From Acidobacteriota bacterium (GTDB lineage Bacteria > Acidobacteriota > Vicinamibacteria > Vicinamibacterales > SCN-69-37), in contig JAHEFO010000010.1 of NCBI GenBank assembly GCA_024640135.1, forward strand, positions 1-37,998: 37,998 bases of DNA, in the 5' to 3' direction. Position numbers and translations under genes: made by a program. How positions within the stretch are numbered: position 1 is the stretch's first letter; the number at the start of each line of letters is the position of its first letter. The notes beneath the pieces are model-generated. The model made no database searches, was not told the origin of the DNA, and saw only the letters and a program-made list of their open reading frames with translations. This document shows positions 30,536-32,563 of the stretch, one piece after another.

Positions 30536-32104
30536 CTAGTGTCTGAAATGCCTGCGTCCTGTGAAGACCATCGCCATGCCGTGCTCGTCCGCCGCCGCAA
30601 TCACCTCATCATCCCGAACCGAGCCGCCCGGCTGGATCACGGCCGTGGCTCCCGCGGACGCCACAACGTCGAGACCGTCACGGAACGGAAAGAACGCGTC
30701 GGAGGCCGCCACTGACCCGGCCAGCCGGTTCCCGGCCTTCATCACGGCGGTGCGCACCGCATCGACCCGACTCATCTGTCCGGCTCCAATGGCGAGCGTG
30801 GCGTCAGCCGACGTAAAGATGACCGCGTTCGACTTGACGTGCGCGCACACGCGCCAGGCAAATCGCAGGGCCATCCACTCGTCCGGAGTCGGCGATCGTC
30901 GCGTGACCACACGCGGCCCTTCGGCAGCCGGCCAGATCTGAGCCGCCTCGACCACGCGATCGCGGTCCTGGACCAACCAGCCCCCAAGAATCGAGCTGAC
31001 GTCGCGCTCCGGCCCGAGCCCATCGAATGACGCGGTAACGACCCGCAGATTCGGCTTGGTCGCCAACACAGCCCGCGTCTCCTCGTCTGCGGCCAGGCCT
31101 GGTGCGATCACGCCCTCAATGAACGTGGACGTGAGCGCGTGGGCCAACTCCAGGTCGATCGGACGATTGAGACCCACGATTCCACCAAAAGCCGAGAGCG
31201 GGTCGGCTTCGCGAGCACGAATGTACGCGTCGACCGAGGTATGACCCGTCGCCACGCCGCACGGATTGGTGTGCTTGATGACAACGGCGGCTGACTCCGT
31301 GAACTCCATGGCGATCCGGACTGCGGCGTCGAGATCGAGCAGATTCGTGAACGACAGGTCCTTGCCTTGATGAACGACGGCGCCACCGAACCCCCGTGGG
31401 CTCATCGAGTACCACGCCGCCGTCTGGTGGGGGTTCTCACCGTAACGCAGGTCGCGGACCTTGCTGAGCACCGGCGCCCATCGGGTGCTCGAAGAACCTC
31501 GTGTGAACACGCCGGCCGTGTCCACCTTGATCTCGCCGAGCGTTCCGGCAATCGTGCGATCGTAGTCAGCCGTGTGGCCATACGCCTTGCGGGCGAGGTC
31601 GAACCGGAGGCCCAACGCCCCCCCATCCGCGCGCAGCGCGTCGACGACCCGGTTGTAGTCCCCGGGGTCGACGACCACCAGGACATCCCGGAAGTTCTTG
31701 GCGGCAGCGCGAAGCAGGCTGGGGCCGCCAATGTCGATCTCCTCAATCAGGTGATCGAACGGCAGGTCCGGCTTGGCCGCTGCCTGGGCAAACGGATAAA
31801 GATTGACGACCACGAGGTCAATCAGTCCGATCCCGTGCTCAGCCAGGGCAGCCAAATCCGCAGGAACCTGACGCCTCGCCAGAATGCCTCCGTGGATCAT
31901 CGGGTGCAATGTCTTGACCCGACCGTCCATCATTTCAGGGAACCCGGTGACGTCCGAAACCCCGACGACGGGCAATCCCGCTTCTGTCAGCGCCCGGGCG
32001 GTGCCCCCCGTGGAAACCAGTTCCCAGCCCAACTCCGACAAGGCCTGTCCCAGCGGAATCAGGCCGGTCTTGTCCGAAACACTCAGCAATGCACGTTTTG
32101 GCAC
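30536..32104 (-). CDS. purH: Bifunctional AICAR formyltransferase/IMP cyclohydrolase
   Basis: PurH carries out the last two steps of IMP synthesis. The 522-residue product has the MGS-like cyclohydrolase domain (ALLSVSDKTGL, TGGTARAL, DGRVKTLHPMIHGGIL 60-74, VVVNLYPF). It also has the formyltransferase domain with LRYGENPHQTAAWY and the catalytic Lys277-His278 (VIKHTNPCG), and ends FTGRRHFRH. The start is GTG 32104, with AAGAGGAC seven bases before it and family-like MPKRALLSVSDKTG. A longer frame from 32197 would run through the promoter of the divergent cold-shock gene. A GATAAT box on the minus strand (32150-32155) could be its -10. Confidence 0.97.
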   Translation of the reverse strand: MPKRALLSVSDKTGLIPLGQALSELGWELVSTGGTARALTEAGLPVVGVSDVTGFPEMMDGRVKTLHPMIHGGILARRQVPADLAALAEHGIGLIDLVVVNLYPFAQAAAKPDLPFDHLIEEIDIGGPSLLRAAAKNFRDVLVVVDPGDYNRVVDALRADGGALGLRFDLARKAYGHTADYDRTIAGTLGEIKVDTAGVFTRGSSSTRWAPVLSKVRDLRYGENPHQTAAWYSMSPRGFGGAVVHQGKDLSFTNLLDLDAAVRIAMEFTESAAVVIKHTNPCGVATGHTSVDAYIRAREADPLSAFGGIVGLNRPIDLELAHALTSTFIEGVIAPGLAADEETRAVLATKPNLRVVTASFDGLGPERDVSSILGGWLVQDRDRVVEAAQIWPAAEGPRVVTRRSPTPDEWMALRFAWRVCAHVKSNAVIFTSADATLAIGAGQMSRVDAVRTAVMKAGNRLAGSVAASDAFFPFRDGLDVVASAGATAVIQPGGSVRDDEVIAAADEHGMAMVFTGRRHFRH

Positions 32105-32122: not shown

Positions 32123-32151
32123 TTGACACGACCCCATTGCCCGACTAGCAT
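32123..32151 (+). promoter_or_regulatory. Promoter for the cold-shock gene
   Basis: A perfect TTGACA (32123-32128) and TAGCAT (32146-32151) are spaced by 17 bases. The predicted start near 32158 gives a leader of about 105 bases before the ATG at 32263. A minus-strand GATAAT for purH would overlap the -10. Confidence 0.6.
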
Positions 32152-32189
32152 TATCGATCGACGTTGGGCGGGAACATCGTCGACGTGGG

Positions 32190-32213
32190 GACCGCATGCG
32201 CGGTCTTTTTTTT
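32190..32213 (+). terminator. Intrinsic terminator inside the cold-shock leader
   Basis: GACCGC (32190-32195), loop ATGC, GCGGTC (32200-32205) and eight T form a canonical intrinsic terminator on the plus strand. It lies between the predicted promoter and the cold-shock gene, with no plus-strand gene upstream to terminate nearby. This suggests an attenuator. A further stem (TCGACG 32158-32163 with CGTCGA 32178-32183) lies just before it. Confidence 0.7.
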
Positions 32214-32262
32214 CTAGTGCGGCGGATTCACCGTCGCCGATCTCGCAAGGCAGGCAAGTACG

Positions 32263-32469
32263 ATGCGAATTACGGGCAAGGTCAAGTGGTTCAACAACGC
32301 TAAAGGTTATGGCTTCGTCGAACGCGAAGGGGGCAACGACGTGTTCGTGCACTTCTCCGCGATTCAGGGCGCCGGTTTTCGGACTCTCGAAGAGGGCCAA
32401 GAGGTCGAATTCGAGATCGTCGACGGTCCGAAAGGCCCCCAGGCCGGAAACGTCACCAAACCAAGCTAA
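32263..32469 (+). CDS. Cold-shock domain protein (CspA family)
   Basis: The 68-residue product is a single cold-shock domain that binds single-stranded RNA and DNA. It has the RNP1-type KGYGFVERE (14-22) and RNP2-type DVFVHFSAI (26-34), with [14 protein letters not shown] at the start and the [17 protein letters not shown] end. These proteins melt mRNA structure and can prevent termination at hairpins. The ATG follows AGGCAAG. The leader contains its own intrinsic terminator, and CspA-type proteins are known antiterminators, so self-control is possible (inference). Confidence 0.97.
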
Positions 32470-32481
32470 GCCACACACACG

Positions 32482-32506
32482 GGGCCGGAACCTGGTGTTC
32501 CGGCCC
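32482..32506. terminator. Strong hairpin after the cold-shock gene
   Basis: GGGCCGGAAC (32482-32491), loop CTGGT and GTTCCGGCCC (32497-32506) pair perfectly over ten bases, 13 bases after the stop. The following TCACTTGT is only weakly T-rich, so it is a likely but not canonical terminator or RNA 3' end stabiliser. It lies between the cold-shock gene and the convergent unknown gene. Confidence 0.55.
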
Positions 32507-32563
32507 TCACTTGTCCCGTCTCCGACACCACCCACCACGCACCCCACACCCGGCTCTTCCGAA

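What the first reader, a model, noticed from the sequence alone, without database searches (positions are those of the whole stretch)
32123..32262. Cold-shock gene leader with promoter, upstream stem and an intrinsic terminator: a likely attenuator
A consensus -35 and fair -10 are followed by about 105 bases of leader. It holds a stem (32158-32183), then a perfect GACCGC/GCGGTC hairpin with eight T (32190-32213), then the csp gene. No plus-strand gene nearby needs this terminator, and it is the only canonical one I see in the window. CspA-family proteins can act as antiterminators, so the gene might control itself or sense temperature through this leader.
Basis: partly seen in the sequence, partly recalled or inferred. 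Interest (0 to 1): 0.62.

Follow-up and report, generated by a model that had tools for sequence, protein, structure and literature searches.

The report
Built-in stop signal before cold-shock gene
In an order of Acidobacteriota, a cold-shock gene is preceded by a conserved RNA hairpin and a transcription stop signal that RNA polymerase must read through to express the gene, in genomes where such stop signals are otherwise almost absent; what opens it is untested.

Summary
Promoter, P1 and terminator recur in 62 of 75 orthologous leaders (shuffles give 0.7), in 13 of 15 families of the order, with compensatory changes in P1. Only 24 nt separate T-run and start codon in two relatives, so csp must be reached by read-through. 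Strict hairpin+T6 terminators are otherwise nearly absent: 4 in 1.24 Mb from four genomes, 3 of them at csp. This supports a conserved transcription attenuator. No conserved antiterminator was found, so a purely RNA switch is not supported; if read-through is regulated, a trans factor is likeliest. Csp itself is the best candidate (half the leaders hold GUCUUUU, the tightest RNA heptamer in a table of B. subtilis CspB affinities), but that is inference. The leader matches no Rfam family, and I found no paper describing an intrinsic terminator in a csp leader. Looser look-alikes occur in csp leaders of other phyla.

The parts
32123..32151 (+). sigma-70-type promoter of csp: TTGACA, 17 nt, TAGCAT
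   Evidence: 60 of 63 leaders have a promoter scoring at least 9 of 12, shuffles 2%
32158..32183 (+). P1, stem-loop at the expected 5' end of the transcript
   Evidence: 6 of 7 modelled P1 pairs show two-sided changes in 57 sequences
32190..32213 (+). intrinsic-terminator-like hairpin GACCGC-ATGC-GCGGTC followed by T8
   Evidence: R1 model match 32150-32218, E 2.8e-16, next best in genome 0.05
32203..32209 (+). GTCTTTT across the 3' arm and T-run: same heptamer (GUCUUUU) as the tightest-bound RNA in a published table for B. subtilis CspB
   Evidence: present in 31 of 63 leaders; Kd 88 nM in PMC6467422
32219..32237 (+). second leader hairpin, GCGGCGG/CCGTCGC, absent in some relatives
   Evidence: fold; missing in L006, L007
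32246..32262 (+). conserved ribosome-binding region CAAGGCAGGCAAGTACG just before ATG
   Evidence: by eye across leaders
32263..32469 (+). csp gene, CspA-family cold-shock protein, 68 aa
32481..32507 (+). strong hairpin after the csp stop codon, without a U-tract
30536..32104 (-). purH, divergent neighbour; not the target of the + strand terminator
   Evidence: start placed at GTG 32104 by eye; purH N-terminus upstream of 51 of 75 orthologues

Best explanation
The leader is a transcription attenuator of csp. RNA polymerase starts at the strong promoter just upstream of P1, P1 folds at the 5' end and leaves the terminator arm free, and the terminator releases a short RNA of about 55-65 nt in a large share of rounds. 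csp is expressed only by the polymerases that read through. Shown by comparison: the anatomy, its conservation, the covariation of P1, and that csp must be read through. Inferred: that termination happens in the cell, and that read-through is regulated. With no antiterminator found in the RNA, I think regulation acts through a protein on the nascent leader, most likely Csp itself, so that csp output tracks free Csp. I put the attenuator itself at about 0.8 and Csp as its regulator at about 0.35.
For: 62/75 orthologous leaders against 0.67 by shuffling; 13 of 15 families. P1 plus terminator: 95.8% of cells paired, 8 pairs with two-sided change against 3.2 shuffled (1/500), slid controls far lower. 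Promoter near-consensus at a fixed place, -10 to T-run mostly 44-63 nt. T-run to ATG as short as 24 nt in L006/L007 and about 23 nt in L288/L290 (by eye), so no room for a second promoter. Strict terminators: 1 in 400 kb of G012, 2 in 400 kb of G092, 0 in 400 kb of G099, 1 in the window; three of the four are csp leaders. csp 3' hairpins lack U-tracts (longest T-run 1-4). The element is kept in 18 leaders where no purH start was seen upstream. For Csp as actor: E. coli CspD binds nascent RNA and weakens intrinsic termination, and CspA/C/E do so at metY-rpsO (PMC9765468); B. subtilis CspB/CspD affect read-through, mostly favouring termination (PMC8307031); GUCUUUU at the terminator/U-tract junction in 31/63.
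Against: No transcript data. The terminator 5' arm is not more paired upstream than in shuffles (0.54 against 0.59), so no RNA switch is visible. GUCUUUU is missing in about half the leaders (GCCUUUU, GGCUUUU), and the U-tract lies inside RNA polymerase when termination is decided, so Csp binding there could not itself cause antitermination. Two families (f4, f5) have lost the terminator, so it is not essential. The window's leader alone does not fold better than shuffles (z -0.98).
Confidence: 0.72

Rival explanations
1. Fixed, unregulated terminator: a partial stop that scales down a very strong promoter to a constant csp level.
For: No antiterminator is found; promoter and terminator are kept together; the terminator is lost in two families without loss of the gene.
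Against: A weaker promoter would do the same job; U-tract and P1 are kept across 13 families in genomes that hardly use U-tracts.
Confidence: 0.3
2. The short RNA is the product: a small RNA gene (P1 + terminator) whose read-through also makes csp.
For: Promoter, stem-loop and terminator form a compact 55-65 nt unit.
Against: Linker and loop sequence vary between families; structure rather than a seed sequence is conserved; always directly upstream of csp; no other strong copy in the genome.
Confidence: 0.12
3. RNA thermosensor acting on translation or folding, as in E. coli and Listeria cspA; the terminator look is incidental.
For: csp leaders elsewhere are thermosensors (PMC8079631); further hairpins lie between the T-run and the ribosome-binding region in most relatives.
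Against: The extra hairpins are missing in some relatives while P1 and the terminator stay; the hairpin abuts T6-T9 in nearly every leader that has it; a hairpin of about -12 kcal/mol in the window should not melt at ambient temperature; Rfam cspA hits are sub-threshold and vanish for the leader alone.
Confidence: 0.15
4. Terminator of an upstream + strand transcript, unrelated to csp.
For: Terminators often lie between genes.
Against: The upstream gene purH is divergent; a conserved promoter lies between it and the hairpin; the element stays with csp where purH is not seen.
Confidence: 0.03

Closest known systems
E. coli cspA leader / Rfam RF01766 cspA thermoregulator
   Same: long structured 5' leader of a CspA-family gene; sub-threshold RF01766 match (39.4 bits, cut-off 78) over leader plus coding sequence
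   Different: the match vanishes when only the leader is searched; the known mechanism acts on translation through temperature-dependent folds, with no intrinsic terminator reported in the sources I read
Listeria cspA thermosensor (PMC8079631)
   Same: about 100-nt csp leader
   Different: described as a refolding switch on the Shine-Dalgarno region, not a terminator
E. coli cspB/cspG premature termination (PMC7815308)
   Same: premature termination in a csp 5' region
   Different: Rho-dependent, in the 5' UTR or ORF; here a canonical intrinsic terminator
Csp antitermination at metY-rpsO and small-RNA terminators (PMC9765468)
   Same: Csp proteins alter intrinsic termination
   Different: those targets are other genes; here the terminator sits in csp's own leader
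Protein-dependent attenuators such as pyr/PyrR (from general knowledge)
   Same: terminator in a leader, regulator encoded downstream
   Different: pyr leaders have defined antiterminators and binding loops; none is visible here

Membership tests
Transcription attenuator (terminator in a 5' leader) | promoter upstream of an intrinsic terminator, with the gene reached only by read-through | tested here: met
   (sequence level only)
Transcription attenuator (terminator in a 5' leader) | conservation and covariation of the leader structure | tested here: met
Transcription attenuator (terminator in a 5' leader) | alternative antiterminator pairing (defining for RNA-switch attenuators, not required for protein-dependent ones) | tested here: not met
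Transcription attenuator (terminator in a 5' leader) | regulated change in read-through in the cell | not testable with these tools
   no transcriptome data
Rfam RF01766 cspA thermoregulator | score above the gathering cut-off | tested here: not met
   39.4 bits against 78; 33.7, 35.2, 50.9 and 54.5 in relatives; none in the leader alone
Rfam RF01766 cspA thermoregulator | temperature-dependent refolding that exposes the ribosome-binding site | not tested
   no probing data; not modelled here
Ribosome-mediated (leader-peptide) attenuator | short translated leader ORF before the terminator | tested here: not met
   by eye, no ATG with a Shine-Dalgarno between the expected start and the terminator in the window

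The most novel reading that the evidence does not exclude
Csp controls its own synthesis through intrinsic termination in its leader, so the leader reports free Csp (and hence the cell's RNA-structure load); this arrangement arose or persisted in several phyla.
Probability: 0.28. Interest if true: 0.75.

Novelty: new variant of a known kind. Interest (0 to 1): 0.57.

Why it matters
Cold-shock gene control is described mainly at translation and mRNA folding. A csp leader with a conserved intrinsic terminator, in genomes that barely use such terminators, would place part of the control at transcription and gives a clean test of whether Csp proteins regulate themselves as termination factors. It also offers a compact reporter for Csp activity in a poorly studied lineage.

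Tried and rejected
Antiterminator within the RNA: 5' arm pairing no higher than shuffles. Kissing between the P1 loop (CGGG) and sequence after the T-run: considered by eye, but that sequence is the 5' side of the next hairpin and is transcribed too late to affect termination. Wider distribution with model R1: outside the class the inspected hits were non-csp terminators, some after tRNA genes. Other targets inside the class: the non-csp hits inspected are weak (about 31 bits or less) and show no shared function. A first strict scan found almost no leader terminators in other phyla; a looser detector found 9 of 71 against 0.83 by shuffling, and 3 of 30 against 0.33 in other Acidobacteriota, so the first negative was too strict. 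The G-U pair kept in the stem (17 leaders with partner G, 13 with A) was considered as a sign of selection for GUCUUU; suggestive only, since the sequences are related.

Full report
What is there. The promoter TTGACA-17-TAGCAT, the stem P1, the hairpin GACCGC/GCGGTC with T8 and the csp gene are at the stated places. The upstream neighbour purH is divergent. On the minus strand the hairpin is not followed by a T-run in the window, so the signal is one-way.

Where it comes from. The window is contig C76 of a 4.32-Mb, 394-contig genome. The window is therefore placed in Vicinamibacterales.

Conservation. I took csp orthologues of 80% identity or more from 100 relatives. In 62 of 75 leaders a hairpin directly followed by T6 or more lies 15-130 nt before the start, against 0.67 expected from shuffles. 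A looser sequence rule counts 63, with T-runs of 6-9 in 62 of them. It occurs in 13 of the 15 sampled families of the order. It is missing in f4, and in f5, where P1 is kept but the T-run has decayed (by eye). The paralogous csp genes checked have no such T6 element.

Structure. A covariance model of P1 plus terminator matches the window at E 2.8e-16 and nothing else in the genome below 0.05. In 57 aligned leaders 95.8% of cells pair, with 8 pairs changed on both sides against 3.2 in shuffles and much lower values when partners are slid. P1 carries most of this. The terminator core CCGC/GCGG is almost invariant and so says nothing by covariation. That alignment was fitted to the model, which favours the structure; the unfitted alignment A1 also shows two-sided changes in 5 of 15 pairs.

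Read-through. In L006 and L007 the T-run ends 24 nt before the start codon, and in L288 and L290 about 23 nt (by eye). No promoter fits there, so csp must be transcribed through the terminator. The promoter is near-consensus in 60 of 63 leaders.

Rarity of such terminators. Strict hairpin+T6 sites, both strands: 1 in 400 kb of G012, 2 in 400 kb of G092, none in 400 kb of G099, one in the window; three of these four are csp leaders. For the fixed motif GGCCGC-N3-8-GCGGTCTTTTT, 12 of 15 occurrences in 100 genomes are at coordinates of csp leaders (compared by me). The csp 3' ends inspected carry strong hairpins with no U-tract.

Mechanism. No antiterminator is visible, and no leader peptide. I therefore favour attenuation by a protein on the nascent RNA, with a fixed partial terminator as the main rival. 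Csp is the natural candidate: Csp proteins weaken intrinsic termination in E. coli (PMC9765468) and mostly favour it in B. subtilis (PMC8307031). The direction here cannot be predicted. The window's terminator/U-tract junction reads GUCUUUU, the tightest of the RNA heptamers listed for B. subtilis CspB (88 nM, PMC6467422), but only half the leaders keep it, and it is hidden in the polymerase when termination is decided. It may matter for the released RNA or the mRNA.

Beyond the order. A looser detector finds terminator-like elements in 9 of 71 csp leaders of other phyla and 3 of 30 of other Acidobacteriota, about ten times the shuffle level. Examples after good promoters are L153 and L195 (Methylomirabilota), L218 (Nitrospirae), L320 and L302 (other Acidobacteriota). 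Some may be thermosensor hairpins or terminators of upstream genes. This was not followed with covariation.

Known or new. The leader alone has no significant Rfam match; sub-threshold cspA matches span the coding sequence. Nine literature searches found csp leaders as thermosensors and Rho-dependent termination in E. coli cspB/cspG (PMC7815308), but no intrinsic terminator in a csp leader. The library lacks most subscription papers; the S. aureus csp thermoswitch paper could not be read. [quoted passage not shown]

Noticed in passing
L281 around 1371-1437, L298 around 1408-1475: Two genomes of the window's family share a hairpin-T7/T8 element with GAGCTGGGGAGCCAGGTCG, weakly similar to Rfam RsmY (about 26 bits, cut-off 57); a candidate small RNA.
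   Followed up: partly
window 32481-32507; L004-L033 after csp: csp 3' ends carry very stable hairpins (about -24 to -45 kcal/mol for the 70-nt stretch) with no U-tract, as if this lineage ends transcripts without U-tracts.
   Followed up: partly
L307, L308, L313, L328 leaders: In family f16 (same class, another order) more distant csp genes also have a leader hairpin GCCGCC/GGCGGC at a similar place, with T0-T5 after it.
   Followed up: no
L153, L154, L156, L195 leaders: All four Methylomirabilota csp leaders seen have a CCGC-containing hairpin followed by T-rich sequence.
   Followed up: no
L040, L044-L047, L051-L053, L055, L057: In family f6 the -35 box (TTGGCA) overlaps the purH start codon on the other strand.
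   Followed up: no
terminator stem, A3 columns 94-97 and 117-120: The CCGC/GCGG core is invariant in nearly all leaders although other stems would pair equally well; unexplained.
   Followed up: partly
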